A DNA stretch of 36,806 nucleotides, taken from the NCBI GenBank assembly GCA_021790425.1, contig JAJYEA010000002.1, forward strand, positions 1 through 36,806, given 5' to 3'. Shown one piece after another: positions 1 to 5,737 of this stretch. The translations under genes and the position numbers were made by a program. Each line of letters starts with the position of its first letter. The stretch's first letter is position 1. This stretch comes from Thermoplasmata archaeon (GTDB lineage Archaea > Thermoplasmatota > Thermoplasmata > Lutacidiplasmatales > UBA184). The notes below the pieces were generated by a model, which saw only the letters and a program-made list of their open reading frames with translations, was not told where the DNA came from and searched no databases.

Positions 1-111
1 GATCTGACGAAGGTGCGAGAGTTCCTCGACCTCTGGAAGGTTCACCGGGAGGTGAGAGTGATCAGGCCCACTCCGGAGGACGTCTCCTCGCTCACCCCTA
101 CTTCGTCTTGA
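1..111 (+). CDS. 3' end of an unidentified gene (partial)
   Basis: Frame 1 is open from the window edge to a TGA at 109-111 and gives 36 residues beginning DLTKVREFLDLWKVHREVRV. The GC-rich codon usage and the helix-then-strand pattern look like the end of a small alpha/beta domain, but the fragment is too short to assign. The gene starts outside the window. No terminator-like T-run follows it; about 157 bases separate it from the next gene. Confidence 0.5.
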   Translation, partial: DLTKVREFLDLWKVHREVRVIRPTPEDVSSLTPTSS

Positions 112-268
112 TTATTGTCCCAAGGCCCGGCCGAACCTCTCCAACGCTTCCCTTCCGGAGCCAGAAGGGCGCGAAACGGCCCGAACGGTCCGGTGAAAAA
201 CGGACCGGCCTTCCCTCGCTCTGCCCGGTCCACAAACGCTTTGGCGGGCCTCGAATACCTGTGCCACG

Positions 269-832
269 ATGGCCGAGGCCTCCCCTCCCCCGGAGTTCTT
301 TCAGAACGTGCCTATTCGCCCGGGCGAGCAGATCCTGGGCTACCTTCCGGGACTCGTCTCGCTCCTCCTGCCGATCCAGGGGGGGACAGGCTACCGGCGC
401 GACGAGCTGCAGCACGGGAACCTCGAGCGAGCCACGGACCTCGTGGGGACGGATCAGCGCCTCCTGGGCTTCAAGGTCGAGGAGGTGAAGGAGTTCTTCA
501 CGCCCAAGAGGGAGTTCCGGGTCCGCTTCGTGGCCCCCTTGGAGAACCTGCGGGAGATCCGGGCGCGGGACAACAAGCTCGAGTTCATGGCCGAGCTCAC
601 CGGCATGGGGTTGAACACGGTCTACCTGGTCACGGGCAGCACGTCCGAGGCCGAGGGACTGTCCCGGTGGCTCGACACGATCGCCCTCGCGAGGAGACAG
701 CGCCTCGGGATGGCCGGCGCCCCGGACTACGGCACCATCCACGAGGGCGGGAAGACGGCGATCATCCGGGGGGACCGCGAGGCCCCGGAAGGGGATCCGA
801 CCCCCGGCCCCGACATAGATCCCGACTTGTAG
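269..832 (+). CDS. Hypothetical protein, possible bacterial-PH-like domain
   Basis: A 187-residue soluble protein with no signal peptide or membrane segment. Residues about 15-75 carry a pattern reminiscent of bacterial PH-like domains: GEQILGYLPG near the N-terminus, then a strand ending TDQRLLGFK, in the position where many PH-like proteins have a 'T.RRL' strand. Alternating hydrophobic strands follow to about residue 140. The last 35 residues are rich in Gly, Pro and Asp and probably disordered. The ATG at 269 has a weak T-rich box about 30 bases upstream (around 236-243), which would fit a leaderless transcript. It is a single gene, with 293 bases before the next one. The PH-like reading is an inference from pattern only; it could be another small beta-rich fold. 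Confidence 0.6.
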   Translation: MAEASPPPEFFQNVPIRPGEQILGYLPGLVSLLLPIQGGTGYRRDELQHGNLERATDLVGTDQRLLGFKVEEVKEFFTPKREFRVRFVAPLENLREIRARDNKLEFMAELTGMGLNTVYLVTGSTSEAEGLSRWLDTIALARRQRLGMAGAPDYGTIHEGGKTAIIRGDREAPEGDPTPGPDIDPDL

Positions 833-931
833 CGCGGACCCGGGACAAGGGGTTGGATCATGGGTGATCGAAGTTCAGCACCGGCCCACCCCGATTTCGA
901 CCCTAGGGGGCCATGACCCATCCGCCGGCTT

Positions 932-968
932 TGTAGGTTAATGGTCGGGCGGAGGAGATTAACCTACA
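932..968. repeat. Inverted repeat, 11-bp perfect arms
   Basis: TGTAGGTTAAT (932-942) is matched by ATTAACCTACA (958-968) across a 15-base spacer. It lies in the 293-base intergenic stretch 833-1125, which holds no gene I can support. It is a different sequence from the 34-bp palindrome 72 bases downstream. It could be a terminator-like hairpin for the PH-like gene, an operator, or the edge of the accessory island. Confidence 0.6.
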
Positions 969-1039
969 CAAGGGGTGAATTGCATACAGGCGCGGCGGGT
1001 TGCACGACGGGTGATGGAATCACCACGCTTTTCACGTCA

Positions 1040-1073
1040 CCCTGGTACCACACTCTAGAGTGTGGTACCAGGG
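1040..1073. promoter_or_regulatory. 34-bp perfect palindrome upstream of the ArsR-like gene (candidate operator)
   Basis: The 17 bases 1040-1056 are exactly the reverse complement of 1057-1073, centred on CTAG with no spacer and no mismatch. The half site reads CCCTGGTACCACACTCT. It ends about six bases before the TATA-like box of the winged-helix gene starting at 1126, where an archaeal repressor or activator would act on TFB/TBP recruitment. A homodimeric ArsR-type protein binds such symmetric sites, so autoregulation is the simplest reading. It could instead form a cruciform or RNA hairpin. Confidence 0.7.
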
Positions 1074-1079
1074 CGAGTC

Positions 1080-1116
1080 TACATATATCTCTTTCGCTTA
1101 CGTTTACCTCAGAGGT
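1080..1116 (+). promoter_or_regulatory. Promoter and ribosome-binding site of the ArsR-like gene
   Basis: A TATA-like stretch, ACATATATC, lies at 1081-1089. Transcription would then start near 1110, leaving a short leader containing GAGGT (1112-1116), nine bases before the ATG at 1126. This supports 1126 rather than the in-frame GTG at 1060, which lies inside the palindrome upstream of the promoter. Confidence 0.55.
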
Positions 1117-1125
1117 AATCGAACC

Positions 1126-1440
1126 ATGACCCACACTGCCCCTAGGGACTTAGCGGAAGCTACGCGTGTCCTGATGCATCCGTTCAGGCTCCAGATGATG
1201 CGCGACCTGTGGGATAGCCCGGACGGGCTCCGTTTCTCCGCGCTCGCCAAGATGAGCCCAGCAAGTGAGAAGCTCGTCGGGTTTCACTTGCTCGTACTCT
1301 CGAAGGCTGGCCTTGTGGAAAGAGCGGCGTTCGACGTGACGGTGCCCCCTCGTTCGCCTGGCAGGGTCGAGGCCCGCTACGCGGCTACCCCGCTGAGCCA
1401 GGAGGCCCGTCGGGAGCTTCTGGAAGAACTCCGCCGCTAG
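1126..1440 (+). CDS. ArsR-like winged-helix transcriptional regulator
   Basis: A 104-residue DNA-binding protein. Residues 8-75 read as a winged helix: a first helix with LMHPFRLQMMRDL, then FSALAKM-SP and a recognition-helix region EKLVGFHLLVLSKAGLVE, the typical ArsR/HTH_20 order ending in the 'L..aGLV' turn into the wing. The wing follows as strands around FDVTVPP and GRVEARYAAT, and a charged C-terminal helix may dimerise. No metal-binding ELCVCD motif is present, so the signal it senses is unknown. It has its own promoter, and a 34-bp palindrome lies directly upstream, suggesting autoregulation. Its last 56 bases overlap the 3' end of the convergent gene ending at 1385. Confidence 0.8.
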   Translation: MTHTAPRDLAEATRVLMHPFRLQMMRDLWDSPDGLRFSALAKMSPASEKLVGFHLLVLSKAGLVERAAFDVTVPPRSPGRVEARYAATPLSQEARRELLEELRR

Positions 1441-1903
1441 ACGGCGGGCCCCCGCCGTCCCGCTTCGTCATCGCGTTCAGGTTAGTGACAATGATGCTGC
1501 AGAGGAACTGGGTCACGTCGTCGATGCGCCGGTTGAACTCTTTGGTAGTAGTGCCGTCTTCGAGGTCGTCGGGGAAGATGACGCTAGAAGGGATGATGGT
1601 TCCCTCTAGGGTAATGTTCCTATGGCCATCGACCACGAGCGTTGCCATGATTCTGACTTCTCCCGATCCTATCTTGTAACAAAGCTGGAGCAGTGCGCTC
1701 GTGTTGCCAGGGAGTTGAGACGTGTCGGACAAAGGAACCAAAGTCTCCTCTCCGGCCGCATTGAACCTCACCCAATCGAGCGACACGGAGTCGATGGATA
1801 CCCCCTTGGTTAGCTTCGTGCCCGGGAATGCCTGTGATATCTTCAAGATGGCATTGATGGTGGTCTTGAGAATCTCTAGCACGTTGCGTTGACCTTGTGG
1901 CAT
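1385..1903 (-). CDS. Hypothetical beta-rich protein in the accessory island
   Basis: A 172-residue protein that I do not recognise. Residues 1-30 form an amphipathic helix (NVLEILKTTINAILKIS), the middle alternates strands (VSIDSVSLDWVRF, VRIMATLVVDG, ITLEGTIIPSSVIF), a helix follows (RRIDDVTQFLCSIIVTNL), and the last 25 residues are Gly/Pro rich. No membrane segment is visible. It starts at ATG 1903, about 29 bases after a strong ATATATAA box that overlaps the stop codon of the upstream gene, so it is probably transcribed separately and leaderless. Its codons are less GC-rich than those of the flanking housekeeping genes. Its tail overlaps the ArsR-like gene tail to tail, so one of the two ends may be shorter in reality. 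Confidence 0.6.
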   Translation of the reverse strand: MPQGQRNVLEILKTTINAILKISQAFPGTKLTKGVSIDSVSLDWVRFNAAGEETLVPLSDTSQLPGNTSALLQLCYKIGSGEVRIMATLVVDGHRNITLEGTIIPSSVIFPDDLEDGTTTKEFNRRIDDVTQFLCSIIVTNLNAMTKRDGGGPPSSGGVLPEAPDGPPGSAG

Positions 1904-1927
1904 TGATTCCCGTACCGGCGAGCAACT

Positions 1928-1937
1928 TTATATATCC
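1928..1937 (-). promoter_or_regulatory. TATA box overlapping the stop codon of the upstream gene
   Basis: On the minus strand the end of the gene at 1928-2632 reads GGATATATAAAG. The TAA stop lies within this TATA-like stretch, centred near 1932, 29 bases upstream of the ATG at 1903. The spacing suits a leaderless transcript of the 172-residue gene. Confidence 0.55.
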
Positions 1938-2632
1938 TTCCTCGCGGGCGGCGGAGACAATGCCGGCTTGACCTGCTCCTCAAGCAGTGCCCAGAACCCG
2001 TCGCCGGCGGTACTCAGCTTCATCATCGCGATGCCCCTTTTCGTGAGAGGGTACTCGAGTCTGACCGCCCCGGCGGTGAGGGTGATTTTCCCCTCCGGAG
2101 GCTCCACCGAGATGTCCCTCTCCGGCCGATTCTCGGACGGTGCCGGCTTGGCAGCGGGTGGCATGAAAGGCCCACTCTTGGACCATCCCTTCTGGAGATT
2201 GGCCCGAATCCGGCCGGCGAATTGGTCTACCCTCATGCGATCCTCCTTCGTGATGTTGACAAGCGTGACCCTCAGATCATCCACCGACGGCACGATCCCC
2301 TTGTAGTGGTGGTAGAGTTCTTGGAACAGGGGTATGCGGTTGAGCATCTCCACAACGGTCCTGGAGTACTCCTCCTCACTGTTCGGGAGCGCTAGTTTCT
2401 GTGCCACCTCGGTTGCGCTCATGGCATCGCCCCTTCCCTGAATCACCCCGTAGCGCTTGACGTCGGCCACCAGTTGGTTGAAGCCTCCGCTCCTCACAGC
2501 AAGCTGCAAGGTCGCGGCCAGAGCCTTTCGGTCGAAGGGCGACCCCTTGAACTGGGTCGCAACCCTCTTGGCTACCTCGATCGCCGTGTCGATATTCGTT
2601 GTGGGAAAATCCCTATCACCAATAGCGGGCAT
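1928..2632 (-). CDS. Hypothetical protein, DUF5343-like pattern
   Basis: A 234-residue soluble protein. Residues 10-130 have a helical, winged-helix-like pattern: AIEVAKRVATQF, ATLQLAVRSGGFNQLVADVKRYGVIQGRGDAMSATEVAQKLALP, then NRIPLFQELYHHYKG and an aspartate-rich loop before DQFAGRIRANLQKG. This order (helix, 'YG.I.G', 'T..A..la.P', 'P.f..L...y') recalls DUF5343-type proteins found near restriction or defence genes, but that is pattern memory and not a search. A Pro-rich linker is followed by a small beta-hairpin and a helix. I chose ATG 2632 because GAGGTT lies six bases upstream (2639-2644) and a TATA-like CTTTATCT at 2677-2684; the open frame continues upstream only through transposase sequence. 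Confidence 0.65.
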   Translation of the reverse strand: MPAIGDRDFPTTNIDTAIEVAKRVATQFKGSPFDRKALAATLQLAVRSGGFNQLVADVKRYGVIQGRGDAMSATEVAQKLALPNSEEEYSRTVVEMLNRIPLFQELYHHYKGIVPSVDDLRVTLVNITKEDRMRVDQFAGRIRANLQKGWSKSGPFMPPAAKPAPSENRPERDISVEPPEGKITLTAGAVRLEYPLTKRGIAMMKLSTAGDGFWALLEEQVKPALSPPPARKDI

Positions 2633-2676
2633 TCTTCGAACCTCTGGGTCCTCAGCAGGGATACAGCAGCAAGGGC

Positions 2677-2684
2677 AGATAAAG
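2677..2684 (-). promoter_or_regulatory. TATA-like box for the DUF5343-like gene
   Basis: The minus strand reads CTTTATCT, about 48 bases before the ATG at 2632, leaving a leader of roughly 20 bases that contains GAGGTT. The box lies at the very edge of the transposase unit, so the insertion seems to sit just upstream of this promoter. Confidence 0.4.
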
Positions 2685-2685
2685 C

Positions 2686-4041
2686 TTACCCATGACAGGG
2701 CCTGTTGGAGAATAAGGGCCCTATTGCCAGGCGCATTCCCCCACCAGTATGGGGTATGGCCACAGGATATCGAAGTTGGCATGTTGGCCAACTTTGTACT
2801 AATCCATTCTCAGGACTTGGGGTTTCCCGCACCACGCCGTTTTCGAACATCTCGTGGATTAGGACGGTGATGTTGTAGGCCAGCACCTTGGCAAGGAGTT
2901 CGTTGACCTGTGCCGTGATGTTCTTCGATTTGAGCGTCTCCCCGAATTTACGCTTGAGAGCGGAGAAGGCGGACTCGACGTTGGACCGCTGGTGGTACTT
3001 CGCTTCGAACTCCTCCCGGTGGAGCTGGAAGAAGAAGTACGCCTTGTGCCAGAGGGGAGTGCCCCAGGATCGCGGCTTGCTGTTGACCTTGAAGGGGACA
3101 TAGAGATCGAACTTCAGCTCCTTGGCGAGATCGAAGTTCGGGCGGGCGAGGTACGCCTTGTCGGCATAGACCTCCTTGAGCGCAATGCCCGCCTTGGCCG
3201 CAGCCCGGAGGAGCGGGGCGAACTCGTTGTTGTCTGCGCCGTTCTTGTCGGTTACGTTGACCCGGACGAATACGTGGGTGTTGACCCCGACGAGCGCATG
3301 GGCCTTGAGCCACCGGCGCTCGCGGCGATCTCCGTGCTTGTCCTCGCGCCAGTATCCGAATGAAGTGGTCTGGATGCCGGTGCTATCGGGAGCGAACCCC
3401 TGCTCGAGCGCCGTCAGTGGCATGGCGGAACGGGTGATGAGGTCGGCGAGGATGGCGGTCACTTCGTCGCGGTTGAGGATCTCGGAGGTAATCCCGTAGT
3501 GCGGGGCTTTCGGCAACTGGCCATGATCCACGGCGTTGCGGAAGAGGCCCCACGCTCGACGGCACGATAGTTGCGAATAGACCTTCTGGATGGCACAGAA
3601 TAACTGTTCACGGACAGGGATTGATGGTCGGCCCGCGTGGTGCGGGTCCCGCTCGGGCTCCGGGACATCCGACAGGAGGTCATGGAGGAGTACGTCGAAG
3701 AGTCGGATCTCCTCCTTCTGCGCCCGGTCGTACGCCTCCCACGCCTGGCCGTATGACAACGGGTGCTCCTCTCTCTTCGTCTTCCCGTTCGGGAGCCTCG
3801 TGACCTTCTTGAGGTAGAACCGGACGCCGATTGAGTGCTTGCAGGGCTTGCCCCGCTTTACGTAGTCGGGGCAGTTGCACTCGAGGTCGCCCTCCTTCCA
3901 CACGACCCGGTAGGCCCCGGGCCCGCTCTGGGAGGCTACGGTGAAGGTGTCGGGCGACACCTTCTCGATGGCTCCTTCGGTCTTGGCGATGGCGAGTCCC
4001 TTCTGTAGACGCTGGGCGTCTATGCCGGCTTTCGCGTTCAT
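2686..4041 (-). CDS. DDE transposase with N-terminal SWIM zinc finger
   Basis: A 451-residue transposase. A SWIM finger is clear at residues 55-69 (C55, C57, C67, H69 in ECNCPDYVKRGKPCKH). A helical region with GRPSIPVREQLFCA (137-150) follows, as in IS4/IS5/IS1182-like proteins. The RNase H-like core has its three acidic residues: D219 (FAPDSTGIQT), D294 (YADKAYL) and E356 (NVESAFSALKRKFG). The normal end of such proteins is near residue 400 (VLIHEMFE); the last 50 residues are low-complexity read-through. The frame is intact, so it may be active. SWIM fingers bind nucleic acid or protein and might give target or end recognition. A TATATA stretch at 4076-4083 could be the promoter. Confidence 0.88.
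   Translation of the reverse strand: MNAKAGIDAQRLQKGLAIAKTEGAIEKVSPDTFTVASQSGPGAYRVVWKEGDLECNCPDYVKRGKPCKHSIGVRFYLKKVTRLPNGKTKREEHPLSYGQAWEAYDRAQKEEIRLFDVLLHDLLSDVPEPERDPHHAGRPSIPVREQLFCAIQKVYSQLSCRRAWGLFRNAVDHGQLPKAPHYGITSEILNRDEVTAILADLITRSAMPLTALEQGFAPDSTGIQTTSFGYWREDKHGDRRERRWLKAHALVGVNTHVFVRVNVTDKNGADNNEFAPLLRAAAKAGIALKEVYADKAYLARPNFDLAKELKFDLYVPFKVNSKPRSWGTPLWHKAYFFFQLHREEFEAKYHQRSNVESAFSALKRKFGETLKSKNITAQVNELLAKVLAYNITVLIHEMFENGVVRETPSPENGLVQSWPTCQLRYPVAIPHTGGGMRLAIGPLFSNRPCHG
2773..2794. repeat. Hairpin in the transposase 3' extension
   Basis: AAGTTGGC (2773-2780) and GCCAACTT (2787-2794) form a perfect 8-bp stem around a 6-base loop. It lies downstream of the conserved end of the transposase, within its read-through tail, where IS200-like or terminator hairpins often lie. 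It may end the transposase transcript. Confidence 0.45.
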
Positions 4042-4054
4042 GGCGGCTTACACC
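4042..4054. repeat. 13-bp direct repeat, copy 1 (copy 2 at 4345-4357)
   Basis: GGCGGCTTACACC occurs directly upstream of the transposase start codon and again 303 bases away at 4345-4357. A second pair, CGGTCACCAT, occurs in the same order at 4124-4133 and 4363-4372. In copy 2 the two words are five bases apart; in copy 1 they are 69 bases apart. The pairs bracket the zinc-ribbon gene. They look like a partial duplication of an element end. Confidence 0.6.
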
Positions 4055-4131
4055 GACAGGGACATGGGCTGAGTAGTATATAGGCACTATGCTACTAAAT
4101 TATATACTTGTAGGCCATAGTATCGGTCACC

Positions 4132-4263
4132 ATGAAGTGCCAGAAGTGCGGTGTGCGAATGTGTCGCACGTACTACCAGCAGCGACGGAAATGGGTCTCG
4201 ACCAACCTCTACATCTGCCCGAAGTGCGGGACGGTGGTTCGCGTCCAGGAGCTGCCGCCATGA
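4132..4263 (+). CDS. 43-residue zinc-ribbon protein
   Basis: A very small protein starting MKCQKCGVRMC and containing CPKCGTVV further on. Cys3/Cys6 and Cys29/Cys32 give two CxxC knuckles separated by 22 residues of basic and aromatic sequence (YYQQRRKWVSTNLYI), the classic zinc-ribbon layout. It is too short to hold any other domain, so it probably binds nucleic acid or a protein partner. A TATA-like AAATTATATA lies about 30 bases upstream (4097-4106), consistent with a leaderless message. It is divergent from the transposase and lies between two repeated sequence words, so it may be IS cargo. Confidence 0.7.
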   Translation: MKCQKCGVRMCRTYYQQRRKWVSTNLYICPKCGTVVRVQELPP

Positions 4264-4295
4264 CCTGACGCGCCAGAGCAGAGGTTATACGACCC

Positions 4296-4365
4296 CCGGC
4301 GTTGGTAGTGTCGGATGGCGACCGGCGATAGCAACCCTTCATCGGGCGGCTTACACCAACGCCGG
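4296..4365. repeat. 70-bp inverted-repeat structure with an IS-end-like arm
   Basis: CCGGCGTTGGT (4296-4306) pairs perfectly with ACCAACGCCGG (4355-4365), with a partial continuation (GTGT/ACAC) across a one-base bulge. The right arm runs into the same GGCGGCTTACACC word that sits beside the transposase. It lies between the zinc-ribbon gene and the tRNA-like sequence. It may be an element end, a small non-autonomous element or a terminator. Confidence 0.5.
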
Positions 4366-4383
4366 TCACCATTCACCGAGATG

Positions 4384-4455
4384 TGGCCCCGCCGGGAATC
4401 GAACCCGGATCAGTAGCTTGGTGCGCAACTGGCTTGTCCGTTAGCCTACGGGGCC
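4384..4455 (-). tRNA. tRNA-like gene with abnormal anticodon arm (possible pseudo-tRNA)
   Basis: The minus strand folds as a 72-nt cloverleaf. Acceptor GGCCCCG pairs with CGGGGCC, followed by discriminator A. The D stem GGCT/AGCC closes a loop with the usual GG, and the T arm is perfect (CCGGG, TTCGATT, CCCGG). No CCA is encoded. The anticodon stem is GTTGC/GCTAC with a central T-T mismatch, and the loop is GCACCAA, which lacks U33 and would place ACC in the anticodon. The 3' half looks normal and the 5' half of the anticodon arm altered. Pairing of the acceptor ends continues four bases beyond the stem (11 bp, 4381-4391 with 4449-4459). It may be a decayed tRNA (the body resembles tRNA-Arg genes) or a non-standard one. 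Confidence 0.6.
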
Positions 4456-4531
4456 ACATCTCCTCCCTGATGGCCATCCGGGGATATGACCCCACGCCGT
4501 GAAACTCTTTAGATACTAATCTGGGCCGAGG

Positions 4532-4708
4532 TTATCCTCCGGGATGGCGTACGGGGCCGACCGGTTGGCCGGATCGTTTGAGTTCTAGCAGCGCCACCTC
4601 TACCAGGTGGCTCCGGTGATGGTATCGTCGGGACCGCACCTCGCTGTCCACCCACGCCACCAACTCCGCCGGAACCGTAACCTGCAACGTGACACGCTTG
4701 CGAGGCAT
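4532..4708 (-). CDS. Ribbon-helix-helix regulator
   Basis: A 58-residue protein beginning MPRKRVTLQVTVPAELVAWV. The order is a basic start, one beta strand (RVTLQVTVP), helix A (AELVAWVDSEVRSRRY), a turn, and helix B (RSHLVEVALLELKRSG), the full CopG/MetJ-type RHH fold. Such proteins bind DNA as dimers through the strand. The ATG at 4708 is 28 bases from a TATTTAAC box shared with the divergent membrane gene, so a leaderless message is likely. It may repress itself and its neighbour, like many RHH proteins in toxin-antitoxin loci, but no toxin is recognisable here. Confidence 0.8.
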   Translation of the reverse strand: MPRKRVTLQVTVPAELVAWVDSEVRSRRYHHRSHLVEVALLELKRSGQPVGPVRHPGG

Positions 4709-4730
4709 GTAGTGGCATAACGGATAGCGG

Positions 4731-4741
4731 GAGTTAAATAC
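4731..4741. promoter_or_regulatory. Single TATA-like box between two divergent leaderless genes
   Basis: GTTAAATA is centred near 4736. It is 28 bases from the RHH start (4708, minus) and 31 bases from the membrane-protein ATG (4767, plus), the right distance for a leaderless start in both directions. The plus side also has two GTGGTGCA words (around 4749 and 4760) just before the ATG, possible operator half sites. Confidence 0.5.
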
Positions 4742-4766
4742 GGGCAACGTGGTGCATCGTGGTGCA

Positions 4767-5042
4767 ATGCAATACAGTGCACCATTGCCGCCCCCTCCCC
4801 CGTCCCTGCAGGCAAAGAAAAGCTGGTCGGGGATGGATTGGGCGCTTGTGGTCGTCATAGTGGTTCTTTTCGTGTTTGTCATGATCGCGGTGGGCAGCTC
4901 AACAGTGGTACAGGAATGCAATGCAAGCGCGACCCAGTGCGGTCAGTACAACTCGGCAGAACCGTTAATCGGACCGGTCCTAATAGTGGTCATACTGGTG
5001 GCCTTCTACCTCGGCAAGCGACGGGGGACGAGGGGCCCGTAG
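4767..5042 (+). CDS. Small two-TM membrane protein
   Basis: A 91-residue protein. A proline-rich start (PLPPPPPS) precedes a first membrane helix at about residues 25-44 (ALVVVIVVLFVFVMIAVG). A short loop with two cysteines (VQECNASATQCGQ) follows, then a second helix at about 63-80 (LIGPVLIVVILVAFYLG), and a basic end (KRRGTRG). By the positive-inside rule both ends are cytosolic and the Cys loop is outside, where it could form a disulfide. ATG 4767 is preferred over GTG 4749 because of its distance to the TATA-like box at 4731-4741. It is divergent from the RHH regulator. Function unknown. Confidence 0.65.
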   Translation: MQYSAPLPPPPPSLQAKKSWSGMDWALVVVIVVLFVFVMIAVGSSTVVQECNASATQCGQYNSAEPLIGPVLIVVILVAFYLGKRRGTRGP

Positions 5043-5078
5043 GATTTGCCTACAGGAGCGGGGATTCTCCGATAGGAG

Positions 5079-5133
5079 GGATATAAAGCTACAAAGCCCC
5101 ATCCGCCGCAAGCGTTTTAAAGCCATTTATATA
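5079..5133 (+). promoter_or_regulatory. Promoter region of tbp with three candidate TATA boxes
   Basis: GATATAAAG (5079-5087), GTTTTAAA (5114-5121) and TTTATATAC (5126-5134) all lie upstream of the ATG at 5146. The middle one is about 28 bases from the ATG and would give a leaderless message. The last is too close to serve the usual start and may be a decoy or autoregulatory TBP site. Confidence 0.5.
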
Positions 5134-5145
5134 CTATAAAAATCG

Positions 5146-5694
5146 ATGGCGAAGATTCGGATAGAAAATGTCGTGGCTTCGACCTCTCTGGGGGACGAGC
5201 TCGATCTTCAGGCGATCGCCCTGACGCTCGAGGGGGCGGAGTACGAGCCGGAACAGTTTCCGGGGCTCATCTACCGTCTCAAGGTCCCGAAGACCGCCAT
5301 CCTGCTCTTCCGGAGCGGAAAGGTGGTCTGTACGGGCGCGAAGAGCATGGCCGAGGTCGAGGAATCCATCCAGAAGGTGGCGAAGGAGATCCGGAAGACC
5401 GGCCAGAAGATCCTCTCCAAGCCCAAGATCGATGTCCAGAACATCGTGGCCTCCTCCGACTTGGGCAGCGAGATCAATCTCAACGCCATCGCGATCACCC
5501 TCGGGCTCGAGCGGGTCGAGTATGAGCCGGAGCAGTTCCCCGGACTCGTCTGCCGCATCGACGATCCTCGCGTCGTGATCCTCCTCTTCGGCAGCGGGAA
5601 GCTCGTCTGCACGGGCGCCCGGAAGCCGGCGGACGTGGACCGCGCGGTCAAGAAGATCACCCTGGAGCTCAAGGGCGCGGGGCTCCTCCGGTAG
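5146..5694 (+). CDS. tbp: TATA-box-binding protein
   Basis: A 182-residue general transcription factor that binds TATA boxes and recruits TFB and RNA polymerase. The two TBP repeats are obvious: IRIENVVASTSLGDELDL with EYEPEQFPGLIYRL and GKVVCTGAKS in the first half, and VQNIVASSDLGSEINL with EYEPEQFPGLVCRI and GKLVCTGARK in the second. The length matches archaeal TBPs (about 180-190). The DNA-intercalating aromatic near the stirrup is reduced to hydrophobic residues (LLF), as in many archaeal TBPs. It is the first core gene right of the accessory island and has several TATA-like boxes of its own. Confidence 0.97.
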   Translation: MAKIRIENVVASTSLGDELDLQAIALTLEGAEYEPEQFPGLIYRLKVPKTAILLFRSGKVVCTGAKSMAEVEESIQKVAKEIRKTGQKILSKPKIDVQNIVASSDLGSEINLNAIAITLGLERVEYEPEQFPGLVCRIDDPRVVILLFGSGKLVCTGARKPADVDRAVKKITLELKGAGLLR

Positions 5695-5737
5695 GCGGCA
5701 CCGCCGCGGGGCCCCCTCGGCTCCCATCTGAGCCTCC

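What the first reader, a model, noticed from the sequence alone, without database searches (positions are those of the whole stretch)
1040..1073. 34-bp perfect palindrome without spacer
A perfect 17+17 palindrome is very unlikely by chance in a stretch of this length and sits directly upstream of the TATA box of a dimeric-type regulator. Most archaeal operators are shorter and imperfect. It may be a strong operator, a cruciform, or an integration/resolution site at the edge of the accessory island.
Basis: seen in the sequence. Interest (0 to 1): 0.55.

Follow-up and report, generated by a model that had tools for sequence, protein, structure and literature searches.

The report
Palindromic operator before an archaeal regulator
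A perfect 34-letter DNA palindrome sits just in front of the promoter of a small regulator gene in an archaeon and is most likely the site where that regulator binds to control its own gene, a common arrangement seen here in an unusually perfect form.

Summary
In detail: 1040-1073 is a perfect 17+17 palindrome without spacer. It is far beyond chance: composition predicts 0.001 in the 2.5-Mb genome, and the next-longest spacerless arm in 639 kb of that genome is 10 bp. Its core is single-copy and absent from 339 other phylum genomes at up to 3 mismatches, so it is not a repeat element. It ends 9 bp before an ATATAT core and 52 bp before the ATG of a 104-aa wHTH protein, ArsR-like at 5.5e-7 but below the curated cut-off, without cysteine. 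Each arm holds TGGTACCA; centres lie 20 bp apart. The same intergenic region has two further notable inverted repeats, 932-968 and 1104-1118. Best explanation: an autoregulatory operator that hinders TFB/TBP access, as proposed for archaeal MsvR; activation from the same site is the main rival. A terminator, a known RNA family or an adapter found no support. A recombination site found little: one 84% direct repeat brackets the region, at chance level. Binding was not testable, no close relative was found for footprinting, and the structure model failed. Ordinary in kind, extreme in perfection.

The parts
1040..1073 (.). perfect 17+17 palindrome, spacer 0, proposed operator; 19 of 20 paired positions over 1037-1076
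1043..1050 (.). TGGTACCA, left internal 8-bp palindrome (centre 1046.5)
   Evidence: D7
1063..1070 (.). TGGTACCA, right internal 8-bp palindrome (centre 1066.5, 20 bp from the left one)
   Evidence: D7
1080..1090 (+). TATA-like TACATATATCT (ATATAT core 1083-1088); the bases just upstream would be the BRE (labels by eye, not tested)
   Evidence: read from sequence
1104..1118 (.). TTACCTC-A-GAGGTAA, second small palindrome over the Shine-Dalgarno-like GAGGT and the expected transcription start
932..968 (.). inverted repeat TGTAGGTTAAT-15-ATTAACCTACA, single in the genome at up to 3 mismatches, role unknown
1126..1440 (+). 104-aa wHTH protein, ArsR-like but without cysteine; proposed cognate regulator

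Best explanation
The palindrome is the autoregulatory operator of the wHTH protein encoded at 1126-1440. A symmetric protein assembly, probably two dimers on the two TGGTACCA blocks 20 bp (about two helical turns) apart, or one dimer spanning the centre, binds just upstream of the TATA box and hinders TFB/TBP access, so the regulator represses its own gene; a ligand or signal would release it. The inverted repeat over the Shine-Dalgarno (1104-1118) may be a second, downstream site. Shown: the palindrome, its rarity, its position, and the wHTH sequence match. Inferred: binding, stoichiometry, sign of regulation and signal.
For: Symmetry far beyond chance. Core single-copy at up to 3 mismatches: 28-bp core, 18-mer, 16-bp centre; the 17-mer half site has one further 3-mismatch match on contig 1, with 3 matches in all against 5 for the reversed control. 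Placement before a TATA-like box and the ATG of a wHTH gene. The frame has coding-like GC by codon position, 0.69/0.49/0.75. Precedents in passages read: MsvR of Methanosarcina, whose N-terminal region has a predicted ArsR-type dimerization interface, binds boxes upstream of the TATA box of its own gene and likely blocks the BRE (PMC3729527); Stf76 binds TTAA-N7-TTAA sites in its own promoter, one overlapping the BRE (PMC4027180).
Against: No binding data. No orthologue for footprinting: 1 weak match (31%, E 4.3e-4) in 149 other genomes. Pfam matches are all below the gathering score and NCBIfam below its cut-off, 29.3 against 55 bits. The single-sequence structure model was poor (mean pLDDT 60.3) and drew strands where the HTH should be. 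The palindrome does not overlap the TATA-like box, so activation fits as well. No other target was established.
Confidence: 0.6

Rival explanations
1. The palindrome is an upstream activating site: the same wHTH protein, or another regulator, binds it and recruits TFB/TBP to the promoter.
For: It lies wholly upstream of the TATA-like box. Upstream sites next to the BRE can activate in archaea (general knowledge, e.g. Ptr2; recalled). The small palindrome at 1104-1118 would then be a well-placed autorepressor site.
Against: The closest ArsR-like archaeal precedent seen, MsvR, is described as a repressor from this position. A lone site at the regulator's own gene is more usual for negative feedback (general knowledge).
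Confidence: 0.2
2. It is a relic or working part of a mobile element (transposon or integration end, resolution site, plasmid origin) next to the accessory genes.
For: An IS5-like transposase lies at 2686-4041, a tRNA-Gly at 4383-4455. The regulator and the gene at 1931-2632 have no match in the genus. An imperfect 19-nt direct repeat at 790-808 and 4282-4300 brackets the region.
Against: One copy of the core in the genome. No match of GGTACCACAC-N6-GTGTGGTACC in viral contigs, none of 1020-1090 in phages, one 84% partial match at E 6 in plasmids. The bracketing repeat is at chance level (at least one such pair in 122 of 200 shuffles, though the real stretch has 4, reached by 7 of 200) and does not involve the palindrome. 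A perfect palindrome lacks the asymmetry that directs recombinases (general knowledge). No integrase or telomere-resolvase search was made.
Confidence: 0.1
3. It acts as a DNA cruciform or an RNA hairpin (terminator, processing site or attenuator).
For: The single strand of DNA folds at -18.7 kcal/mol, z -7.5.
Against: Any perfect palindrome folds so. No terminator-like site in 800-1500. No Rfam family at gathering score there; mir-9223 and mir-497 models matched far below it (25.9 against 53 and 21.3 against 62 bits). It lies upstream of the expected transcription start.
Confidence: 0.06
4. It is a library or assembly artefact, since it reads like nested linker sites (GGTACC, TCTAGA, GGTACC).
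For: The resemblance to a linker only (by eye).
Against: No similar stretch in phages and only a weak partial one in plasmids, none with the inner bases in viral contigs, no text match of three of its substrings in the paper library. Contigs share a 127-base end, which suggests k=127 assembly, so the palindrome with flanks would lie inside single k-mers (inference).
Confidence: 0.03

Closest known systems
MsvR autoregulated promoter of methanogens (PMC3729527; passages and section 7 read)
   Same: Archaeal regulator with a predicted ArsR-type dimerization interface; two boxes directly upstream of the TATA box of its own gene (in Methanosarcina); proposed BRE block.
   Different: The MsvR boxes form a partial inverted repeat TTCGTA-N4-TACGAA and binding depends on cysteines; here the palindrome is 34 bp, spacerless and perfect, differs in sequence, and the protein has no cysteine.
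Stf76 of the plasmid-virus pSSVx (PMC4027180; passages read)
   Same: Small archaeal wHTH protein that binds sites in its own promoter, one overlapping the BRE.
   Different: TTAA-N7-TTAA sites; the paper says Stf76 lacks the usual added dimerization elements; much longer symmetry and another sequence here.
FadR of Sulfolobus acidocaldarius (PMC6449355; passages read)
   Same: Archaeal regulator with only four genomic sites and two dimers on one operator.
ArsR/SmtB metalloregulators (NF033788)
   Same: wHTH region matches the model over residues 10-66.
   Different: Below the curated score (29.3 against 55), and no cysteine, so no cysteine metal site.

Membership tests
ArsR/SmtB family regulator | wHTH domain matching the family model above cut-off | tested here: inconclusive
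   NF033788 E 5.5e-7 but 29.3 bits against cut-off 55; HTH_20 0.009 and HTH_5 0.015, below gathering; structure model unreliable.
ArsR/SmtB family regulator | metal-binding cysteines (ELCVC-type motif, recalled) | tested here: not met
   No cysteine in the 104-aa translation. ArsR-like proteins without metal sites exist (recalled), so this removes the metal-sensing claim.
autoregulatory operator | symmetric, non-repeated site at the promoter of the regulator gene | tested here: met
   promoter elements read by eye
autoregulatory operator | bound by the gene product and changes transcription | not testable with these tools
   needs gel shift, footprint and in vitro transcription
autoregulatory operator | conserved with orthologues of the regulator | tested here: inconclusive
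   No orthologue to compare: 1 weak match in 149 other genomes; no core palindrome in 339 other genomes.
recombination or transposon-end site | a second copy or partner site | tested here: not met
   the bracketing direct repeat is at chance level and is not a copy of the palindrome
recombination or transposon-end site | a cognate recombinase nearby | tested here: inconclusive
   IS5-like transposase at 2686-4041; integrases and telomere resolvases were not searched for
intrinsic terminator | stem followed by a T run | tested here: not met

The most novel reading that the evidence does not exclude
A three-part control region for a lineage-specific archaeal wHTH protein: a perfect spacerless palindrome of two stacked dimer sites upstream of the TATA box, a second palindrome over the start and Shine-Dalgarno, and a distant inverted repeat at 932-968, together giving tight, looping or dual (transcription and translation) self-control of one gene with few or no other targets.
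Probability: 0.12. Interest if true: 0.45.

Novelty: new member of a known kind. Interest (0 to 1): 0.27.

Why it matters
If right, it gives a clean, self-contained operator and regulator pair from an archaeon, with an unusually symmetric site well suited to test how archaeal regulators next to the BRE act on TFB and TBP, and it could serve as an orthogonal switch. It does not change any general picture.

Tried and rejected
Repeat element: rejected; the core is single-copy and the half site has one extra 3-mismatch match, below the control. Mobile-element end or att site: no second copy. One search lists 5 direct-repeat families in 1-5150; none covers the palindrome, and one (790-808 and 4282-4300, 16 of 19) brackets it. 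Xer dif site: considered because the palindrome can be written 11-6-11; dropped because none of 339 other phylum genomes has the core. Terminator or known RNA. Adapter artefact.

Regulon search: the looser pattern GGTACCAC-N10-GTGGTACC at up to 3 mismatches in 5 genus genomes gave counts below the reversed-pattern control in all 5 (own genome 18 against 20 forward), so no regulon is claimed. TGGTACCA-N12-TGGTACCA has 10 viral stretches, none with the inner 12 bases of the window. In the window TGGTACCACAC at up to 2 mismatches gives 4 matches against 4.13 expected.

Relatives of the regulator: none in viral contigs or phages, one partial 34% match at E 0.01 in plasmids, one 33% match in genome contigs (its ORF looks MarR-like by eye). 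PHROGs none, PDB one at E 0.54. The structure prediction from one sequence was poor and was not used for a fold search.

Full report
OBSERVATION. The window holds CCCTGGTACCACACTCTAGAGTGTGGTACCAGGG at 1040-1073, a perfect palindrome with 17-bp arms and no spacer; the repeat finder extends it to 20-nt arms at 95%. Composition predicts 1.7e-5 such events in the window and 0.0011 in the 2.5-Mb genome; in 639,114 bases of that genome (47 stretches, about a quarter) the runner-up spacerless arm is 10 bp, seen twice. In 2000 dinucleotide shuffles of 833-1125 the longest spacerless arm was 9.

ANATOMY. Each arm carries TGGTACCA, itself a palindrome, at 1043-1050 and 1063-1070, centres 20 bp apart. 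A TATA-like TACATATATCT follows at 1080-1090 with ATATAT at 1083-1088, nine bases after the palindrome; a Shine-Dalgarno-like GAGGT is at 1112-1116 and an ATG at 1126 (read). One search lists 8 inverted pairs in 833-1200. Besides the palindrome I single out two: 932-968 with perfect 11-bp arms and a 15-base spacer, and 1104-1118 with perfect 7-bp arms around one base. The first has no other match in the genome at up to 3 mismatches and none for the control; the second has one other place with 2 mismatches, fewer than the control's. In shuffles an arm of 11 or more with spacer up to 15 arose in 1 of 2000, and a 7-bp arm with spacer up to 6 in the 50-bp leader in 13 of 2000; these tests were chosen after seeing the repeats.

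REGULATOR. The 104-aa protein matches NCBIfam HTH_metalloreg at 5.5e-7 over residues 10-66 but below its cut-off. Pfam HTH_20 and HTH_5 reach 0.009 and 0.015, and two Csa3 models of PADLOC 0.00028 and 0.0013, which probably only reflects a shared wHTH. It has no cysteine. Its codon-position GC is 0.69/0.49/0.75; 29 of 31 window ORFs listed in the same call have a third-position GC of 0.80 or more, but that list had been filtered to values above 0.75. Of 150 genomes searched, own included, one other had a match, at 31% identity and E 4.3e-4. A single-sequence AlphaFold2 model was poor (mean pLDDT 60.3) and did not show the HTH; as far as it goes this is against my reading.

UNIQUENESS. The 17-mer half site at up to 3 mismatches has 3 matches in the genome, two being the palindrome itself and one on contig 1 with 3 mismatches, against 5 for the reversed control. 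The 28-bp core at up to 3 mismatches occurs in 1 of 340 phylum genomes, the own one, while the reversed control matches in 5 of the genomes in that table. G001 and G002, two of the four congeners, are not in that table; a looser pattern in all five genus genomes gave counts below the control. No viral contig has GGTACCACAC-N6-GTGTGGTACC.

SETTING. The contig begins at window base 1, where 127 bases are shared exactly with the start of contig 61 and 99 of them with the end of contig 81. The gene at 269-832 has relatives in 2 of the 4 congeners at 67-68% DNA identity over some 200 bases, with other neighbours. The gene at 1931-2632 has one weak match (22%, E 1.7e-4) in 90 other genomes. An IS5-like transposase with a SWIM domain lies at 2686-4041 and a tRNA-Gly at 4383-4455. 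At 5139-5698 similarity with 3 of 4 congeners returns at 83-85%. An imperfect 19-nt direct repeat at 790-808 and 4282-4300 brackets the lineage-specific stretch; a single such pair is at chance level (122 of 200 shuffles), though the stretch has 4 such pairs in all, reached in 7 of 200. No boundary found here falls on the palindrome.

MECHANISM. The most likely function is self-control by the wHTH protein: a symmetric assembly binds directly upstream of the TATA box. [quoted passage not shown] Stf76 binds TTAA-N7-TTAA sites in its own promoter, one overlapping the BRE (PMC4027180). FadR of Sulfolobus shows that two dimers on one operator and a regulon of four sites occur in archaea (PMC6449355). 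Because the palindrome does not itself cover the TATA box, activation is the main rival. Binding, sign and ligand are inferred.

VERDICT. A real and extreme palindrome, most likely an autoregulatory operator of an ordinary kind. The unusual points are its perfection, its solitary occurrence, and its company of two other inverted repeats.

Noticed in passing
window 2686-4041: IS5-like DDE transposase with an N-terminal SWIM zinc finger, an uncommon fusion as far as I recall.
   Followed up: no
window 932-968: Inverted repeat with 11-bp arms around a 15-base spacer containing GGAGGAG, single in the genome.
   Followed up: partly
window 901-920 and 1124-1147: CCATGACCCA occurs at 911-920 and again over the start codon at 1124-1133, and CCCTAGGG at 901-908 and 1140-1147.
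   Followed up: no
window 790-808 and 4282-4300: Imperfect 19-nt direct repeat (16 of 19) bracketing the lineage-specific stretch, the second copy near tRNA-Gly; chance level as a single pair.
   Followed up: partly
L026 1724-1753 (G000 contig 1): Perfect 13-bp arms around a 4-base loop, the second longest short-spacer inverted repeat in the 639 kb scanned.
   Followed up: no
L092 about 1252-1277 (G000 contig 47): GGTATCACACAAGGTTATATGGTATC, a 3-mismatch match to the looser pattern over a TATA-like stretch before or in the start of a long ORF that looks Kelch-like by eye. The pattern's overall count is at control level.
   Followed up: partly
window 1-127: Contig start shared exactly with contig 61 (127 bases) and contig 81 (99 bases), probably an assembly branch point.
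   Followed up: partly
L082, L083 (reverse), L084, L087 (viral contigs): Three spaced GGTACC-type palindromes in one short stretch, identical in four viral contigs.
   Followed up: no
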